Source: Verrucomicrobia bacterium SCGC AAA164-M04 (GTDB lineage Bacteria > Verrucomicrobiota > Verrucomicrobiae > Verrucomicrobiales > Akkermansiaceae). Taken from it: a stretch of 21,705 nt of DNA. Shown in pieces: positions 9,271 to 19,284 of this stretch. The notes below the pieces were generated by a model. It was not told where the DNA came from. It worked only from the letters and a program-made list of their open reading frames with translations, and did not search any database. A program made the position numbers and the translations under genes. Every line of letters begins with the position of its first letter. Positions within the stretch are counted from its first letter, which is position 1. The DNA is taken from assembly GCA_000383735.1 (NCBI GenBank), contig KB912141.1, positions 1-21,705 of the forward strand, written 5' to 3'.

Positions 9271-12200
9271 ATGAAAACAGCGGTTATCGGCATAATATCG
9301 ACCCTCGTAACGATGGTTTTTGGTCAATTCGAAGCAACATCTCCAAATCCCGGACTGAAAAATCGGCAATATCAGCAGGAACTCGCTGATGCTTACGAAC
9401 GCATCGATCCCACGAAAGACGGATGGGGATCCGAAGCCCAGTCATCAGAATACCAAATAGTCCTCGAAAATTTCCTCGATAGCCTCCTCCACCAGCGAGA
9501 AACCAAGCATATTACGCCAAATTTTTCATCCGCGCAGCTCCTCAAGCCTCAAACCAATATCGTCTTTGAAAACGCCGGGCTCATCGTTCGTAGAATTTTT
9601 AAAGATTCGGTCAAAATACCTTATTCCGCAATCACATCACGCACGGAACCTGAGTTCAAAGCAAAGGTTAAGATGATTTCGGTTACCTCCAAAACCTCAG
9701 ACTCACTCGTTACCCTCAAATCCCCCCTCCTCCAAATCAACGCCCTTTGGTCCTGTAGTTGGACAGAAACCTCTCCCCCTAAATTAGAGGCCATCACCCT
9801 CAAGGAATTTGAAGAAGTCGAGCAGACCGGACCTCACCAACTCCTTACCGACGTCACAGCTTCCGCATTCAATCAAAATCCTTCTTATCAATCCCAGCTT
9901 CTCCGCTCAACCGACCACTGGCGCAGCCGTATCCCCCGCGATTTCGGACTCGATTCCGCTGCAAACCACGGCCTCGCTCTAGCCGACGTAAATGGCGACG
10001 GTCTCGAAGATCTTTACCTTTGTCAACAAGGCGGCCTCCCCAACCTTCTCTTCTTACAAAATCTTGATGGCACGCTCACCGATTTCTCCGTCGAATCAAA
10101 AACTAATTGGCTCAATTATTGCGCCGCCGCCCTCTTCCTTGACTTCGATAACGACGGTGATCAGGACCTCGTTATCTCGCAGGATTTTAAAATCCTTTTC
10201 ATGGACAACATCGATGGTCAAGGCCACTTCGAACTTGCCTTTGGTCGCTCCACCAAAGCTCAGTCCTTCTCCCTCACCTCCGCTGATTTCGATCAAGACG
10301 GCTTCGTCGATGTTTATGTTTGCGGCTACAACCCCTCGGCATCTTCAGCACGGGCCGGAGCCCTCGCCGAGCCCGTTCCATTTCACGACGCGAACAACGG
10401 AGGCCAAAACATTCTTTGGCGAAACAACGGCGACTGGACCTTCAACGACGTCACCGAACAAACGGGTCTCAACCAAAACAACACCCGCTTTTCTTTTGCC
10501 GCTTCGTGGGAAGACTACGACCAAGACGGAGACCTCGACCTTTACATAGCCAATGACTTTGGCCGTAACTGCCTCTACCAAAACCAAGGGATCGAACCTG
10601 GAAAGCTCCCTTCCTTTATCAACATTGCCGGCCCTCTTGGTATCGAAGACTCTGCCGCCGGCATGTCAACCAACTGGGGTGACTTTAATAGGGACGGTTG
10701 GATGGACCTCTACGTTTCTAATATGTTTTCAAGTGCTGGTAGCCGAGTCACGGGACAAAATCGCTTTCTTAAGAAACTTGAGCACGACAATGATACGGCC
10801 AGCACCTTCCAACGGATGGCTCGCGGAAACTCCCTTTTCGCCGCCAACCGAAAAGGTGGTTTTACCGATGTCTCGATTCAAACAAAAACCAACATGGCAC
10901 GCTGGTGCTGGGGATCTACCTTTGCAGATCTTAATAATGACGGGTGGCTCGATATTCTCGGTGCAAACGGCTTTATCACTGCCGAAGACACAGCTGATTT
11001 ATGAAGTGTCTACTGGCGACAGGTCGTGTCGCAATCACCTACCGATCCCCAGAATGATAACCTGAGCCTACAATCCTACCGTCAGGGTTGGCAGGCTCTC
11101 AATCGTCTTCTTCACGAAAACAAATCGTTTTCTGGACGCGAAACAAACAACGCCTTCCTCAATTGCGGCAAGAATACTCCCTTTGCTGACGTTTCCAGCA
11201 CTATCGGCTGGGATTTTTCCGACGACGCCCGTGCCATCGGACTGATTGACTACGATCACGATGGCGATCTTGATCTTTTTGTCACAAACCGCACTGCTCC
11301 TCGTGTCCGGCTCCTACAGAACAATCTCAGATCTGAATCCAACTTTCTCTCACTTCACCTCACCGGCTCTGCCAAAACAACCCCGCGAGATGCCATTGGA
11401 GCTCGTGCCGAAGTCCATCTTAAAGAACAATTAGTCCCTCATCTCCGCACCCTCCACGCCGGCCAATCTTTCTTAGCCCAATCCTCCCGTTGGCTACACT
11501 TTGGCCTTGGTAAAGATGCCATTATCGAAAAAGTCGTCATTCACTGGCCCGGCTCGAAATCTCAAATCTTCACAGGCATCAAGGCCAACCAACAACTCCA
11601 TCTCACCCAAGGTATAGCAACCGCCACCCCTCGCAAAACCCGCCGAAATTCCACTCTCATAGAAACACCACACCCGATCCCCGAAAAAAGCTCGGCCGCG
11701 CGCATCATTCCCCCAGTAGGCCACACCTTCCCAAATATACCCACCGCTAATGGCGAGCCCCTCTCCATTTCGGAGACCACCCTAATCGCTCTTTGGAGCC
11801 GCACTTGCCCGCACTGCCAACAAGAACTCCAAAGTTGGGCCACCAAAGCTACCCAATTTAAGACGTCGAACATTAAACTCGCACTCCTCTGCACCGACCA
11901 AGAACACAACGATCAAGCCAATGCCTATCTTAAGTCTATCAATTCGTCCTTTTCCACCCGCATGGCTGGCCCCGAAGCCGTCGAGCTACTCGACGCCCTC
12001 CACGCTTCCATCATTGACCTTTGGATTCCCATTCCCGTTCCCACTAGCTTCCTAGTCTCAAAGGAAGGACAGCTCCTCGCCATTTATCGAGGTAACGCTT
12101 CAATCGAGCAAATCATTAACGACACCAAATTCGCAACAGGAACCCCCTTGGAACGTCGCTCTGCCGGCACCCCCTTCGCAGGACGCTGGACTAGCAAGCC

Positions 12201-13035
12201 CGCACCGTCTTCTCCCCAACGCACAGCTCAACAACTACTCCAACGTGCCCAGCCCAGTCTCGCTATCAACTACCTCCGCTCGGCTCTGACAAAGCCATTC
12301 TTCCAAGGCGAAAAATTCACCCGGAGCGACAATCTTTTACTTCTCGGCCAAATCTTGGGACAACAAGGCCGGCCAACCGAAGCCATTCCCGAACTCGAAG
12401 CCGCTAGAGAACTTCTCCCCAAAGATATTCGCATTCTACGCCTTCTTGCAACTGCCCACGCTGAAACAGGCAAGTTTTCAAAATCCTTCGCGATTCTCAA
12501 CGAAGCTATATCCTACCACCCTCAGAACTTAGATATCTACGATGACGCCATTGATATTGCGCGAAGGGCTAACGATCCCATCCGATTGTTAAATTACCAA
12601 AAAAAAACAGCTGACAACAACCCTGAAAATCCCAACTTAAGATACCGCCTTACCCTATCTCAACTCGAAGAAGGACAACCTTTGGACGCTATCGCCAACT
12701 GCAAAACTATTCTCCGGACTTCACCTAAATTCCTCGAAGCTGCAAACCTCCTCTCGCGCATCCTTTCCACCCATCCTAAGGAAAAAGTCCGCAGCCCGCA
12801 GGAATCTCTAGCTCTCGCCTCCCGTCTTTGCCTGATCTCCAAAAATCGCAATGCCAACCACCTCCTCAGCCTAGCCTACGCTCAAGCCAATCTTAGAAAG
12901 TTTGACGAAGCTACCAAGAAGCTCAAGCTTCTCACCAACCTCGCTCCACCTGGATCCAAGTTCACAAAGGAGGTTGAAGCCGCTCTCGTAAAAACAAAAG
13001 CCAGTCAACCCATTCGCAATATCCTCTGGAAATAA
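9271..13035 (+). CDS. FG-GAP/ASPIC-UnbV/thioredoxin/TPR protein with in-frame TGA, candidate new selenoprotein
   Basis: Reading through one TGA (11002-11004, codon 578) gives an exported protein of 1254 residues in a single frame. Order: signal peptide (MKTAVIGIISTLVTMVFGQF); an N-terminal region without a recognised domain; six FG-GAP/VCBS blades with Ca-binding-like DxNxDG loops (DVNGDG, DFDNDG, DFDQDG, DYDQDG, DFNRDG, DLNNDG); the TGA in ADL-U-SVYWRQVVSQSP; a seventh blade (DYDHDG); an ASPIC/UnbV domain with GARAEVHL, HAGQSFLAQSS and VVIHWPGSKSQ; a TlpA-like thioredoxin domain with WSRTCPHCQQE (Cys846, Cys849); and a C-terminal TPR region. A hairpin with SECIS features follows the TGA at the right distance, and the next gene is a clear selenoprotein. 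Known members bind calcium or partners outside the cell, but the function is unknown. Alternatives are a nonsense mutation or sequencing error, or two proteins (9271-11004 and from GTG 11026). The ATG at 9271 follows a GTG at 9268. Confidence 0.8.
11002..11032 (+). promoter_or_regulatory. Candidate bacterial SECIS element in the FG-GAP gene
   Basis: The TGA at 11002-11004 is followed by 17 nt, then an apical loop GGTCG (11022-11026) closed by a perfect 6-bp stem, GCGACA (11016-11021) with TGTCGC (11027-11032). Known bacterial SECIS hairpins lie just after the UGA and have a small apical loop with G in the first two positions, and this one fits. The loop shares GGTC with the GGTCT loop of the neighbouring formate dehydrogenase. 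The hairpin is inside coding sequence, so codon constraint could mimic pairing, but six perfect pairs at this exact place are unlikely by chance. Confidence 0.7.
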
Positions 13036-13145: not shown

Positions 13146-15884
13146 ATGATCAACGACCCAAGCTCCGCCATCGCCTCGCAACTCGCCATCACAATTGATG
13201 GTCAGCTAACCACGTTTACCGAAGGCGAAACCATCTACCAAGTTGCCACTCGTCTCAAAAAAAACATCCCGACCCTCTGCTACGACGATCGGCTCGATGC
13301 TTTTGGAGCCTGCCGCCTTTGCGTTGTAGAAGTTAAAGGCATCCGTAATCCCGTCGCGTCCTGCACGACCAAAGCCAATGATGGGATGGTCGTTAAAACC
13401 GCCCCACCCGAAATTGAGAAGATGCGCAAAACGCTCCTCGAATTGGTCGCTTCCGAAAATCGTCAAATCGAAGTCAATCCCCTGCGTGGCCTCGCCTCCC
13501 AAGAACTATCCACCCTTGTCAACAAATACGGAGCCCGCAACGACCGCTTCAAGGGAGCAAAATCAGGCACCTCAAACCTTAAAGACGAAAACCCCTTTAT
13601 CCTCCGTGACTACGAGCAATGTATTTCTTGTTACCGTTGCGTTCGCGTCTGCGCTGAACAGGAGGGCGATTATGCCATCACCGTCGCCAACCGTGGTTTC
13701 CAAACCCAAATTACCACGGAGTTTGACAGCGACCTTCGCGATTCAGATTGCACCTTCTGCGGACAATGCATCCAAACCTGCCCCACCGGCGCTCTTGCCG
13801 ACAAGAAGGCTATCCGCGCCGAAACCCTCCCAGAGCCAGTCAAGAAGACTCGTACCGTCTGCCCGTATTGCGCCGTCGGTTGTTCTATTGATCTTATGAC
13901 CAAAGGGGACAAAATTGTCGGCGCTCAACCCGCGATGGACGGCCCGGCTAACAAGGGGGCTCTTTGTATCAAGGGTCAATTCACTTACGATTTCATCCAG
14001 CACGAAGACCGGCTCAAAAAACCACTTATTAAACAAGCCGACGGCACCTTCAAAGAGGTTGAATGGGACGAAGCACTCAAGAAAGCCGCCGAAGGATTTG
14101 CGAAAGCAAAAGCAAAATACGGCCGGCATAGTATTTTCGGCATCGCCTCCGGCCGAGCACCACATGAAGCCGCCTACTCGATGCAAAAATTTATTCGGGC
14201 CGGCTTTGGGACTCATCATATCGACAATTGTAGTCGAGCCTGACACGCTCCCACTGTGGCCGGTCTGGCCGCTCAAATAGGAAGAGGCGCAATGTCTAAT
14301 CCCCTCGCGGATATGGACAAGCCCGACACCATCTTCGCGATCGGCACCAACATGACCGAGTGCCACCCCGTCGCTGCTACCGGCCTCAAAAAAGCACTCA
14401 CCAAAGGAGCTAAACTCGTCGTCGCAGACCCGCGTAAAACCCGCCTCGCCGAACTCGCCCACCTCCACCTCCCCATCCGCGTTGGTTCCGACGTAGCCCT
14501 CCTTCTCGCAATGGCCCACGTCATCGTCCGCGATGGAATCGCCGACGAACAATTCATAGCAGAGCGTTGCGCCGACTACGAGGAATTCCAAAAACACCTC
14601 AAGGAATTCACTCCAGAGTGGGCTTCCGAAATCTGCGAAGTCCCCGCCGCCGAAATCGAAACTGCTGGCAAACTTTACGGCTCTGCCAAACTCGGCGCGA
14701 TCTATTACACGCTCGGCATCACTGAGCACATTTGTGGGGTCGACAATGTCCAGTCACTTTGCAACCTCGCACTCCTCACCGGAAACCTTGGAAAGGAAGG
14801 CACTGGCATCAATCCGATGCGCGGGCAGAATAATATCCAAGGCGCCGGAGACTGCGGAGCTGTTCCTGCCAACTACCCTGGGTTCCAGCCCGTGGCATCA
14901 GCGGAATCACATGAAAAATTCAAGGCTGCTTATCAACAGCCAGATATGGATCTTGGCAACCCAATGACCAAGGTCACAGCCCTCAATCTTTGTGGAGCAG
15001 CAGAAAACGGAATCCACGCCATGCTCATTAATGGCGAAAACACCGTTGTCACTGATCCTGACAAAAACCACTGTGAAAAGGCCCTGAAATCTCTCGATCA
15101 CCTCGTCGTCGTTGACATCTTTCTCACCGAAACCGCGCAGATGGCCGACATCGTCTTTCCAGCATCCGCCTGGGGAGAAACCGACGGCGTTCAAGCCAAC
15201 ACTGAGCGCCGCGTTCAGCGCCTTCGCAAAGCCGTTCCGAGCTACGGAGATTCAAAACCAGACTGGTGGATCATCGCTGGCATCGCCAAAGAACTTGGCA
15301 TCCCCGGTTTCGAATTTGAGAGCGCCAAAGACGTCTTCAACGAGCTCTGCTCACTCAGCCCGATCTACAAAGGCCTCAATTGGGACAACATCGGCGATGG
15401 TGTTTACCACTGGCCTGTCCCTGAAGAAGGCCACCCCGGCACCCCGCGACTTCACGAAAGCGAATTCAAAGATGGCATGCGCGGCAAATTTAAAGTTATT
15501 GGCTACCGCGACCCAGCCGAAGTGATAGACGCCGATTACCCTGTCTGGCTCACGACCGGACGACGCCTTCAAGCCTATCATACCCGAACCCAAACCGGAC
15601 GCGCTAGTGGGATCGACTACCTTCTTGCCGAAGAGACCCTGGAGATTCACCCCAAAGATGCCGAAGACTGGGGACTGATCGACGGAGCTATGGCGAAAAT
15701 GGCCAGCCGCCGCGGCGAAATCGAACTCAAGGTCGAAACTACCAGTCGCTCTCCAAGAGGCACTGTCTTTACAAGCTTCAGCTTTGCCGACACCAACGTC
15801 AACGTCCTTACCGGCTCAGGATACGATCCTGTCACCCAAACTGCTGAATTAAAAGTTTGCCCCGTGCGTATTCGCCCGGCCTAG
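13146..15884 (+). CDS. fdhA: Selenocysteine formate dehydrogenase, catalytic (alpha) subunit
   Basis: A cytosolic molybdenum- or tungsten-dependent formate dehydrogenase of 912 residues, read through TGA at 14241-14243 as Sec366, that oxidises formate to CO2 (or the reverse). Domain order: a [2Fe-2S] ferredoxin domain (LCYDD, GACRLC, ASC); two [4Fe-4S] clusters (CISCYRCVRVC and CTFCGQCIQTCP); the active-domain [4Fe-4S] motif CPYCAVGC with GALCIKGQ; the catalytic segment NCSRA-U-HAPTVAGL, which aligns with the Sec site of E. coli FdhF (CARV-U-HGPSVAGL); and a C-terminal molybdopterin-dinucleotide-binding domain (WLTTGRRLQAYHTRTQTGR). No Tat signal is present, so it is a soluble NAD(P)- or ferredoxin-linked type. 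The beta/gamma flavin subunits and fdhD are not in the window. The ATG at 13146 has no strong Shine-Dalgarno sequence. The downstream part alone (from 14256) would lack all Fe-S clusters. Confidence 0.95.
14241..14275 (+). promoter_or_regulatory. Bacterial SECIS element of the formate dehydrogenase
   Basis: The TGA is followed by 18 nt and then the loop GGTCT (14262-14266), closed by GGCC (14258-14261) with GGCC (14267-14270). The stem can be extended by T-G and G-C pairs on the outside. Loop sequence and 18-nt spacing are the same as I know for E. coli fdhF, so SelB-type recognition is expected. The bulged U of the E. coli stem is not obvious. Confidence 0.93.
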
Positions 15885-16740: not shown

Positions 16741-19284
16741 ATGCCTTTTTTACTCCTCTTCTTACTCATTCCCTCATTCGTATCAGCGGCCGACCCCTAC
16801 CGCTTCGAAGTCAAAACCATCGCGGAGGACTTCGCGCGCCCCATGGGGATGGACCTAGGGCCTGACGGCTCAATTTACCTCATCGAACTTCAGGGCAAAG
16901 TTAACCGTATTCATCCTACAACTGGAAAGCGGACTATCCTTGCTGAAATTGAAGTTTTCGGAGAACAAGAAAATGGACTTCTCGGTATCGCTCTCGATCC
17001 CAACTTCAAGCAAAACAACCACCTCTTCCTTCTCTATTCACCAGCAAATTTTATCGGACAGCGAATCAGCCGTTTTACAATCAAAAAGGAGACTCTCATC
17101 GATGAGAAAAAAGTCATTGAATGGAATACTCAACGCCGTGAATGTTGCCACCACGGTGGCATGCTGAAATTTGGTCCGAATGGTTGCCTCTTCGCTTCCG
17201 CCGGAGACAACACTCATCCTTTTGGTGACTCAGCGTCATATGCACCCATCGACCGACGCCCCAACCGAGAACCATGGAATGCCGAAAAATCCTCCGCCAA
17301 CCCCAACGATCTTCGCGGCGGATTGATTCGTATCAAGGTGCAGCCTGATGCAAGTTATACCATACCCGAGGGAAACCTCTTCCCTCCCGGAACCAAAGGG
17401 ACACGCCCCGAAATCTACGTGATGGGCTGCCGCAACCCTTGGAAATTCTCCATCGACCCTAAGTCAGGCCACCTCTACTGGGGGGAAGTTGGACCCGATG
17501 CCGGAAAAGATGGACCTCGCGGACCCCGGGGACACGACGAAATTAACCAAGCCCGCAAAGCTGGTTTTTTCGGCTGGCCCTACTTCATCGCCGATAACAA
17601 GCCCTACTCGCGTGTCGACTTTGCCAACGGAAAAGTCGGCCAAAAGTTCAATCTTCAAAAGCCTATTAATGATTCACCTCTTAATACCGGACGAAAAGAT
17701 CTTCCCCCACCTCAGCCCGCTTTAATCTTTTATCCTTACGCAGATTCAAAACAATTTCCTGAGCTCAAAAAAGGAGGTCGCACCGCCTGCGCCGGCCCGG
17801 TTTTCCACTACAATCCTAAGTTCGAAAAAACCGGAGGTTTCCCTAAAGAATTTGATCACTGCCTTCTTTTTTGGGACTGGCACCGTCCTTTCATTAAATG
17901 GGGAAGACTTGATGAAAATGAAGATCTTGTCGGTATCGAAAACTTCTCAATTCCTGCCAAAATCAAAAGACCTTCTGACGCCCTTTTTGCACCCGATGGG
18001 ACTCTTTGGTTCATCGATTACGGAGCTACATGGGGAAACAACAAGGACGCCAAGCTTCTCCATATCAGCTATCGCCATGGGAATCTCGCCCCAGTCGCAC
18101 AATTTACAATCGACAAAAAGAATGGCCCCCTCCCGCTAAAGATAAAAGTTAATGGCTCTATTTCCAAAGACCCTGAAGGCACACTTTTAAAATTCGCTTG
18201 GCTCAAAGATGGTAAAGCTGTCTCAACTGACGCAAAAACCACGCTTATTTTCACTGAGCCCGGAGACCACCCCATCACCTTAAATGTCACAGATGCGCAG
18301 GGCGCTACCAATGAGTTCACCCAATACGTCAGCGCCGGGAACTCCCCGCCCAAACTTGCTTTTCAATCACCCCTCGACGGATCTTTTTTCACCCTAGGAA
18401 AACCTCTTAAATATCGCCTTGCGATCCAAGACAATGAGGAAGGTAATTCGAAGTTAAAGCCGAATTCCTTTGCTTCAACCGTAGTGACCCTAGCTCCTCT
18501 CGCTAAAGTCTCTCCCGGCCTCTCCGCCATTCGTGCCTCCGACTGCTTCAATTGCCACCATGCTTCGCAAAAACTGATCGGCCCCTCGTTCAACGACATC
18601 GCCAAGCGCTATAAAGGCAATGCAGCAGCCTTTGATAGCTCTGTCGAGAGGGTCATAAAAGGCTCTTCGAAAGTCTGGGGCGAAATCCCTATGCTTCCGC
18701 ACCCAAATCTTAAGCGTAACCAAGTCGCATCCATGGTTCGGTGGATCTACTCCCTCTCCGAGAAGAATACACCGCAAGTCTCTCGCGGCATTGAGGGGAA
18801 TATGACACCATCAAGTGTAAATCAATCACTCGAGCTATCCGCAAATTTCACCGACCTTGGGGCATACGAAGGCAAAGCCACTCCACTTTCAGGAGGCACT
18901 TCGATTCGACTCCACCCGCGCACCATTGAGGCTGAAAATTTTTCCTCTCACAAAGGCCCCCAAATCCTCGATGGTGATGGCTTCAAGTTCGTTGGAGCAA
19001 TTAATCACTCCCACTGGATCGAATACCCCGGATTCCGGATTAAAGACTGTAAAAACTTCACCGTCCGATACGCCTCGGGGGGCGCGGGAGCAAAGATTAC
19101 ACTCACCGCTAATGGAAAAAAGATTGCTGCCGCCGAAATTAAACCCACTGGTGGCTGGGATAAATGGAAAGAAACGACGGTCCCCCTCAGAGACCTACCC
19201 GACGGGCTCGTAGATCTTCGCCTTACCTTCACAAATCCCGGCAAACAACATCTCGTAAACCTCGACTGGATCCACTTCGAATAA
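16741..19284 (+). CDS. Secreted sorbosone-dehydrogenase-like/PKD/cytochrome c/CBM6 protein
   Basis: An exported multidomain protein of 847 residues. A signal peptide (MPFLLLFLLIPSFVSA) is followed by a six-bladed PQQ-type glucose/sorbosone dehydrogenase-like propeller to about residue 440, with RPMGMDLGPDGSIYLIE, NGLLGIALDPNF, RECCHHGGML and RNPWKFSIDP. Next come a PKD domain (about 445-530), a class I cytochrome c domain with Cys602-Phe-Asn-Cys605-His606 and likely axial Met651 (EIPMLPHP), and a C-terminal carbohydrate-binding CBM6-like domain (IEAENFSSHKG to NLDWIHFE). It could oxidise a sugar and hand electrons to its own heme while bound to polysaccharide. PQQ or another cofactor cannot be read directly. 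It ends 12 nt before the first sulfatase, so the three genes are probably one operon for sulfated glycan breakdown. Confidence 0.85.
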   Translation: MPFLLLFLLIPSFVSAADPYRFEVKTIAEDFARPMGMDLGPDGSIYLIELQGKVNRIHPTTGKRTILAEIEVFGEQENGLLGIALDPNFKQNNHLFLLYSPANFIGQRISRFTIKKETLIDEKKVIEWNTQRRECCHHGGMLKFGPNGCLFASAGDNTHPFGDSASYAPIDRRPNREPWNAEKSSANPNDLRGGLIRIKVQPDASYTIPEGNLFPPGTKGTRPEIYVMGCRNPWKFSIDPKSGHLYWGEVGPDAGKDGPRGPRGHDEINQARKAGFFGWPYFIADNKPYSRVDFANGKVGQKFNLQKPINDSPLNTGRKDLPPPQPALIFYPYADSKQFPELKKGGRTACAGPVFHYNPKFEKTGGFPKEFDHCLLFWDWHRPFIKWGRLDENEDLVGIENFSIPAKIKRPSDALFAPDGTLWFIDYGATWGNNKDAKLLHISYRHGNLAPVAQFTIDKKNGPLPLKIKVNGSISKDPEGTLLKFAWLKDGKAVSTDAKTTLIFTEPGDHPITLNVTDAQGATNEFTQYVSAGNSPPKLAFQSPLDGSFFTLGKPLKYRLAIQDNEEGNSKLKPNSFASTVVTLAPLAKVSPGLSAIRASDCFNCHHASQKLIGPSFNDIAKRYKGNAAAFDSSVERVIKGSSKVWGEIPMLPHPNLKRNQVASMVRWIYSLSEKNTPQVSRGIEGNMTPSSVNQSLELSANFTDLGAYEGKATPLSGGTSIRLHPRTIEAENFSSHKGPQILDGDGFKFVGAINHSHWIEYPGFRIKDCKNFTVRYASGGAGAKITLTANGKKIAAAEIKPTGGWDKWKETTVPLRDLPDGLVDLRLTFTNPGKQHLVNLDWIHFE

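What the first reader, a model, noticed from the sequence alone, without database searches (positions are those of the whole stretch)
10960..11100. Candidate new selenoprotein family: FG-GAP/ASPIC-UnbV protein with in-frame TGA and SECIS hairpin
Directly seen: one frame runs from 9271 to 13035 interrupted only by TGA at 11002-11004. Domain logic continues across it, with six FG-GAP blades before and a seventh blade plus the ASPIC/UnbV domain after. A perfect 6-bp stem with loop GGTCG begins 12 nt after the TGA, with the loop 17 nt after it. The next gene is a certain selenoprotein with loop GGTCT at 18 nt, so this organism must decode UGA as Sec. I know of no described selenoprotein in the ASPIC/UnbV (CRTAC1-like) family. 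The residues around it, ADL-U-SVYWRQVV, look like a conserved motif and not degenerate sequence.
Basis: partly seen in the sequence, partly recalled or inferred. Interest (0 to 1): 0.93.

Follow-up and report, generated by a model that had tools for sequence, protein, structure and literature searches.

The report
Propeller-thioredoxin selenoprotein family in bacteria
A large bacterial gene is interrupted by one UGA codon followed by an RNA hairpin that is conserved in relatives from several phyla; the UGA is predicted to be read as selenocysteine, making a likely secreted propeller protein that would work with its own built-in thioredoxin domain, a kind of selenoprotein missing from the published lists we could read.

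Summary
In detail: one frame (9271-13035, +) is broken only by TGA at 11002-11004, with a perfect 6-bp hairpin (loop GGTCG) just after it. TGA at this site recurs in 144 distinct sequences (window included) from Verrucomicrobiota, Planctomycetota, Acidobacteriota and single loci labelled Myxococcota and Pseudomonadota. In two genome samples scanned with the codon left open, 150 of 155 matches were TGA, none TAA or TAG. The hairpin covaries, even between an Arg wobble base and the first base of the codon four further on. All 28 relatives with a TGA match carry selA, against 9 of 30 without. The modelled protein is a CRTAC1-like propeller fused to a TlpA/ResA-like thioredoxin domain and TPRs. 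The thioredoxin CxxC is kept in 63 of 68 Sec rows and 2 of 2 Cys rows but in 3 of 26 rows with Asp, Ser, Ala and the like: Sec and CxxC probably form one redox relay. Non-Sec forms rarely have Cys, which may be why Cys/TGA methods missed the family; a May 2026 table of 119 prokaryotic selenoprotein families lacks it. Selenium incorporation and substrate are untested.

The parts
9271..13035 (+). read-through gene of the predicted propeller-thioredoxin selenoprotein (1254 aa, ATG start, TAA stop)
   Evidence: homologs aligned over 1-1254 with one in-frame TGA
9271..9336 (+). hydrophobic N-terminus, probable signal peptide (by eye, no predictor was run)
   Evidence: translation
9817..11616 (+). 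CRTAC1-like region: FG-GAP propeller and ASPIC/UnbV domain
11002..11004 (+). in-frame TGA, predicted selenocysteine codon (residue 578), first residue of a predicted helix
   Evidence: helix 431-441 of the model begins at this residue
11005..11037 (+). bacterial SECIS-like element; stem 11016-11021 with 11027-11032, loop GGTCG 11022-11026
10996..11028 (+). conserved motif DL-U-SVYWRQVV
   Evidence: A1 conserved columns
11704..12135 (+). TlpA/ResA-like thioredoxin domain; CPHC at residues 846-849 (11806-11817)
   Evidence: Foldseek 1jfu, 3c71, 2h1b; profile match to TlpA and ResA; both Cys invariant in the 53 rows of A1
12319..12930 (+). TPR repeats
   Evidence: Pfam, NCBIfam
13146..15884 (+). 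neighbouring formate-dehydrogenase-type selenoprotein gene (TGA 14241-14243), used as a comparison

Best explanation
The TGA at 11002-11004 is predicted to be decoded as selenocysteine, directed by the hairpin right behind it, giving a likely secreted CRTAC1-like beta-propeller protein whose Sec would be reduced by its own TlpA/ResA-like thioredoxin domain. Shown by sequence: the open frame on both sides, the codon conserved as TGA across phyla, a covarying hairpin, co-occurrence with selA in relatives, and loss of the thioredoxin CxxC where the Sec or Cys is lost. Inferred: that SelB brings Sec-tRNA to this UGA; that Sec, at the start of a predicted helix, is the attacking residue; that the CxxC recycles it; that the reaction is a thiol or selenol oxidoreduction (peroxide, disulfide or sulfoxide) outside the cytoplasm. 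The substrate and the role of the TPRs are unknown.
For: Codon: 101 of 105 matches to a codon-blind pattern in 58 relatives' genomes were TGA, 0 TAA/TAG, and the 4 others (AGC, CCC, GCC, CGA) look like chance (counted by eye); in 392 genomes of a second phylum 49 of 50 were TGA, 1 was GAC (Asp), 0 TAA/TAG. In one search, a homology search that does not ask for TGA, the listed matches that span residue 578 contain an in-frame TGA (read by eye, its exact place not checked for each; the list is cut) and the four listed without a stop do not span it. Hairpin: 106 distinct DNA sequences of the main type, 96.2% of pair cells paired in register against 17-65% when slid by 1-3; pair 18-28 is A-T 44, G-T 39, G-C 14, C-G 2, T-A 1, T-G 1, unpaired 5, so paired in 101 of 106, reached by 0 of 10,000 shuffles (kinship not kept); the 3' arm (columns 27-31) was not part of the search pattern. 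Machinery: selA in 28 of 28 relatives with a TGA pattern match and 9 of the other 30, Fisher 4.6e-9; selB over cut-off in 24 of 27 of the genus (2 of 14 control genomes). Coding on both sides: dN/dS against 8 relatives 0.07-0.26 upstream, 0.11-0.22 downstream, 0.04-0.23 in the 100 codons after TGA (dS over 1 for three of the eight). Redox pairing: CxxC in 63 of 68 U rows with a thioredoxin match, 2 of 2 Cys rows, 3 of 26 other rows, Fisher 4.2e-14 (a cruder text search gave 58 of 68, 2 of 2 and 2 of 26). Cys occurs at the site in P0127 and P0128. Structure.
Against: No selenium incorporation, peptide or activity has been measured. The window's own assembly is not held, so its sel genes are inferred from relatives. 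In 20 further genomes with the pattern selA was over cut-off in only 13 (one more has a fragment at a contig end), and G340 had no full mark of any of the three machinery parts except a tRNA match just over its cut-off; the completeness of these genomes is not given. tRNA-Sec is a weak mark: the family also rings in control genomes (14 of 14, over cut-off in 5). Rfam does not recognise the hairpin. Of 29 non-Sec rows 27 have a residue other than Cys, unusual for a catalytic Sec. The selA and CxxC tests are not corrected for kinship: 22 of the 28 genomes are one genus, and only 3 independent pairs lie on well supported branches (2.6 on average go the expected way, none the other way, p 0.25). 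Eight of 76 U rows gave no thioredoxin match (7 had under 420 aa after the site in the open frame) and 2 with a match lack both Cys, so the relay cannot be intramolecular in all members. No distance between Sec and CxxC could be measured.
Confidence: 0.8

Rival explanations
1. The TGA is Sec, but Sec is not part of a relay with the thioredoxin domain: it serves as a metal or substrate ligand or a structural residue in the propeller, and the two features are lost together only because whole lineages relaxed.
For: Non-Sec rows carry Asp, Glu, Asn or Gln in 18 of 29 cases, residues that can bind metal; FG-GAP propellers are rich in Asp loops; some members have no fused thioredoxin match.
Against: CxxC follows the state of the site: 63 of 68 U, 2 of 2 Cys, 3 of 26 others, while a thioredoxin-profile match is kept in 26 of 27 rows with neither Sec nor Cys; Sec sits at a predicted helix start, usual for redox Cys/Sec (recalled).
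Confidence: 0.15
2. The UGA is a real stop and the locus is two genes, the second starting at GTG 11026, as the databases annotate it.
For: Of the 120 listed best hits to this part 119 lack the site, 98 of them beginning shortly before the next conserved motif; 8 of 117 proteins of the second search end in DL just before the site; TGA ends long ORFs in related loci.
Against: No TAA or TAG at the site in 155 matches; residues right after TGA (SxYWRQ) are conserved while their codons vary synonymously; unsplit homologs exist with a sense codon; the break would cut inside a CRTAC1-like fold.
Confidence: 0.03
3. UGA is reassigned or leakily read (for example as Trp) genome-wide.
For: None of 14 window genes ends in TGA.
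Against: 3 of 9 long ORFs end in TGA in a stretch of the nearest held genome; among the window genes examined only two have an in-frame TGA, each followed by a hairpin; selA tracks the TGA form.
Confidence: 0.01
4. Sequencing error or pseudogene.
For: The nearest held genome's copy is also broken by an apparent frameshift.
Against: The same TGA in 144 distinct sequences and purifying selection on both sides.
Confidence: 0.01

Closest known systems
CRTAC1 (cartilage acidic protein 1) and other FG-GAP plus ASPIC/UnbV proteins
   Different: Mouse CRTAC1 is not matched by the sequence profile over the stretch that carries the Sec motif; no thioredoxin domain or Sec is known there (recalled)
TlpA / ResA thiol-disulfide oxidoreductases
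   Same: Thioredoxin-like fold and CxxC; one PDB match is a ResA variant with the same CPHC motif
   Different: Here the domain is fused behind a propeller and the Sec lies outside it
Sec-containing TlpA-like and thiol-disulfide isomerase-like selenoproteins (PMC13188914, Table 1, read)
   Same: Sec used in connection with thioredoxin-like proteins
   Different: There the Sec motif is UGC or UxxC; here both Cys of CxxC remain and Sec is in another domain
Selenoprotein formate dehydrogenase (next gene)
   Same: In-frame TGA with a GGTCT-type hairpin loop 18 nt on (here GGTCG, 17 nt)
   Different: Unrelated protein; its Sec binds the metal cofactor (stated in PMC13188914, section 7)

Membership tests
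Bacterial selenoproteins | in-frame UGA inside one conserved protein | tested here: met
Bacterial selenoproteins | SECIS-like hairpin directly after UGA, conserved by covariation | tested here: met
   no Rfam SECIS match at this site
Bacterial selenoproteins | selA, selB, selD and tRNA-Sec in the same genome | tested here: inconclusive
   own assembly not held; in relatives selA in 28 of 28 with a TGA match, selB over cut-off in 24 of 27 of the genus, tRNA-Sec over cut-off in 40 of 58 with cross-matches in controls; selD not searched
Bacterial selenoproteins | Cys-containing homologs at the UGA position | tested here: met
   2 of 29 non-Sec rows have Cys (P0127, P0128, one clade); 27 have other residues
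Bacterial selenoproteins | selenium shown in the protein | not testable with these tools
   needs 75Se labelling or mass spectrometry
ASPIC/UnbV (CRTAC1-like) proteins | FG-GAP repeats and UnbV_ASPIC domain over Pfam cut-offs | tested here: met
   118.9 bits (FG-GAP_3) and 60.3 bits (UnbV_ASPIC)
ASPIC/UnbV (CRTAC1-like) proteins | CRTAC1 fold | tested here: met
   9etn ranks first
TlpA/ResA-like thioredoxins | thioredoxin fold with CxxC | tested here: met
   Pfam AhpC-TSA alone is under its cut-off (21.1 against 26 bits)
Described prokaryotic selenoprotein families (119 in PMC13188914, Table 1) | a listed FG-GAP, ASPIC/UnbV, CRTAC1 or propeller family | tested here: not met
   table read; it holds a few hypothetical proteins without a named domain; no NCBIfam selenoprotein model matched at E 0.001

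The most novel reading that the evidence does not exclude
A hitherto undescribed, widespread Sec-dependent beta-propeller-thioredoxin oxidoreductase family of Verrucomicrobiota, Planctomycetota and Acidobacteriota, present in up to 12 or more copies per genome, in which Sec is the old state and is replaced mostly by Asp, Ser, Ala or Glu together with loss of the CxxC partner, so that a large part of these bacteria's selenoproteome has been invisible to methods that rely on Cys homologs.
Probability: 0.65. Interest if true: 0.9.

Novelty: new variant of a known kind. Interest (0 to 1): 0.87.

Why it matters
It would add a large selenoprotein family with a fold not in the current list, in phyla that a 2026 review does not name among the selenoprotein-rich ones (PMC13188914, passages). 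It would show Sec and a fused thioredoxin acting as one unit, visible through their joint loss. Many database entries for these genes, perhaps thousands, are probably split at the UGA (the best 120 of 4041 hits were seen). It also points to a blind spot: searches that ask for Cys homologs (deep-Sep says so itself, PMC12013277, passages) would pass over families whose non-Sec forms lost the redox residue.

Tried and rejected
Rfam as a SECIS test: nothing at gathering score; at a lax threshold the only SECIS match is the neighbouring gene's hairpin. Two genes or a plain stop: rejected by the codon-blind scans. Genetic-code change: made unlikely by TGA-ended long ORFs in the nearest held genome. 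A phylum-wide sample of 288 genomes around G001 gave only G001 as a true carrier; its four other hits, in four genomes, lack the conserved codons and look like chance, so the family is patchy. A fused thioredoxin in all members: not so. Independent-pairs test: too few pairs. Record-size selenoproteome: not claimed, since the counts cover this family alone and only pattern-matching members. The first script for the covariation failed by a syntax error and was rerun.

Literature: full-text searches of the open PMC library for selenoprotein with ASPIC, selenoproteins with FG-GAP, UnbV and phylum names (20 of 30 papers listed), large bacterial selenoproteomes, selenocysteine with FG-GAP (0 papers), selenocysteine with CRTAC1, UnbV, VCBS or Roseibacillus, newer phylum names, new-family terms (20 of 28 listed) and groundwater MAGs showed no report of this family in titles, abstract starts or the passages read. 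Passages only were read of PMC4807772, PMC12013277, PMC5029168, PMC9312934, PMC2398784 and PMC8318568; of PMC13188914 the outline, passages, and parts 1 and 2 of 3 of section 7, which hold Table 1. PMC9402790 was not read (one search failed). Supplementary tables (for example S9 of PMC4807772) and the groundwater study cited as reference 66 of PMC13188914 were not read and might hold such candidates.

Full report
What is there. The frame 9271-13035 (+) is open except for TGA at 11002-11004, residue 578 of 1254. Twelve to 28 nt after it lies a perfect 6-bp stem with loop GGTCG. The read-through protein has FG-GAP repeats, a UnbV_ASPIC domain and TPRs by Pfam. The next gene is a formate-dehydrogenase-type selenoprotein gene.

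The codon is conserved as TGA. P0001 was searched in 58 relatives' genomes: 44 have a match, and the listed matches that span residue 578 contain an in-frame TGA (the list is cut, this was read by eye, and the place of each TGA was not checked). A pattern with the codon left open gave 105 matches in 30 of 58 genomes: 101 TGA in 28 genomes, 0 TAA, 0 TAG and 4 others that look like chance; the reversed control pattern gave 0. In 392 genomes of the phylum of G353 (a planctomycete by its record title, L121) a like pattern gave 50 matches in 27 genomes: 49 TGA and one Asp codon. In 288 genomes of the window's phylum only G001 was a true carrier, so the family is patchy.

Distribution. After removing repeats and two misfits (L112, cut at its start and probably genuine; L160, unrelated) 144 distinct members remained over all loci, the window's included; in this set TGA is there by construction. 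The 101 from named genomes are labelled Verrucomicrobiota 54, Planctomycetota 31, Acidobacteriota 11, no phylum 3, Myxococcota 1, Pseudomonadota 1 (MAG labels can be wrong). In 20 of these genomes the pattern is found 1 to 12 times. This is a lower bound: a sister type (USSLWRAVV) escapes it.

The hairpin. In 106 distinct sequences of the R[QE]VV type, 96.2% of the six pairs are formed; sliding the partner gives 17-65%. Pair 18-28 joins the third base of the Arg codon to the first base of the codon four further on: CGA with TCG 41, CGG with TCG 38, CGG with CCG 11, CGC with GCG 2, CGT with ACG 1, and so on. It is paired in 101 of 106, against a shuffled mean of 88 and maximum of 97 in 10,000 shuffles, which do not keep kinship; pair 16-30 is paired in 99, reached by 2 of 10,000. 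Columns 27-31 were not in the search pattern. A second type (W[RS][TSA]VV, 17 sequences) has the 3' arm moved by one base, 93.1% paired against 8-63% slid. The one Asp homolog with DNA at hand folds worse there than the window (-5.4 against -9.7 kcal/mol) and has LWSRED where the window has LWSRTCPHC.

Machinery. selA is over its cut-off in 37 of 58 relatives (1 of 14 controls): in the 28 of 28 with a TGA match and in 9 of the other 30 (Fisher 4.6e-9; 22 of the 28 are one genus). selB is over cut-off in 24 of 27 genomes of the genus. In 20 diverse carriers selA is over cut-off in 13, tRNA-Sec scores 67 bits or more in 18, and of the 7 without full selA, selB is over cut-off in 5. Of the other two, G351 has a 69-bit tRNA-Sec; G340 has a selB piece below cut-off and a tRNA match barely over it.

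Selection. Against eight relatives dN/dS is 0.07-0.26 before and 0.11-0.22 after the TGA, and 0.04-0.23 in the first 100 codons after it (dS is over 1, hence rough, for three of them).

Homologs without Sec. The databases hold halves: of the best 120 of 4041 hits to the C-terminal side 119 lack the site and one spans it (P0041, Asp). Of the 117 new proteins listed in the second search, 29 span the motif, 8 end in DL and 80 lack the motif. The 29 rows used for the tree, picked by the motif, with near copies and P0041 left out, have D 11, S 4, A 4, E 4, C 2, Q 2, N 1, T 1. On a quick tree of 76 Sec and 29 other rows, Sec versus non-Sec needs at least 9 changes, 4 forced by well supported branches; Sec rows lie on both sides of the deepest splits of the drawing, but the root is not settled, some of these are long branches, and the two kinds of row were collected in different ways. 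That Sec is the old state is therefore an inference.

Mechanism. SelB would bind the hairpin and deliver Sec to the UGA (inferred from the known bacterial pathway). The protein probably leaves the cytoplasm by its hydrophobic N-terminus (by eye). Sec would attack the substrate and the CxxC would reduce the product; the substrate is unknown. I put Sec decoding at about 0.97, the Sec-CxxC relay at about 0.8, and a specific reaction at far less.

Novelty. A May 2026 review lists 119 prokaryotic selenoprotein families or subfamilies (PMC13188914, Table 1); none is named as an FG-GAP, ASPIC/UnbV, CRTAC1 or propeller protein, though a few are hypothetical proteins without a named domain. No NCBIfam selenoprotein model matches. 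deep-Sep states that it may miss selenoproteins without Cys homologs (PMC12013277, passage). Supplements were not read, so an unnamed candidate there cannot be excluded.

Noticed in passing
L210 577-3534 (+) and 3530-5869 (-); L212 124-3498 (+) and 3256-5541 (-): Two further Sec-type members (USSLWRAVV and USCFWSTVV) lie tail to tail with overlapping open frames in related genomes; the first type escapes the search pattern.
   Followed up: partly
L027, L029, L043, L049, L066 and others: In several members of the second type a Cys follows two residues after the Sec (USC), a possible built-in resolving residue.
   Followed up: no
G001:C9:145968-149730 (L011, L217): The nearest held genome's orthologue has, besides the TGA, an apparent frameshift that splits its N-terminal part.
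   Followed up: no
window, 14 genes: None of the 14 genes checked ends in TGA (11 TAA, 3 TAG), though a stretch of the nearest held genome has 3 of 9 long ORFs ending in TGA.
   Followed up: partly
L131 / G046 contig of 253,611 bases: A MAG titled Akkermansia muciniphila has a contig of the same length as one in G046, which carries five pattern matches; the label may be wrong.
   Followed up: no
L151: A divergent acidobacterial member with DF-U-TFFWRQVVADAE; it falls on a very long branch with the myxococcal L126.
   Followed up: no
window 16741-19284: Glucose/sorbosone dehydrogenase domain with PKD and CBM6 domains.
   Followed up: no
window 14238-14296: The formate-dehydrogenase hairpin matches Rfam SECIS_3 at about half its gathering score (33.2 of 63 bits); the Rfam SECIS models may be too narrow for this phylum.
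   Followed up: no
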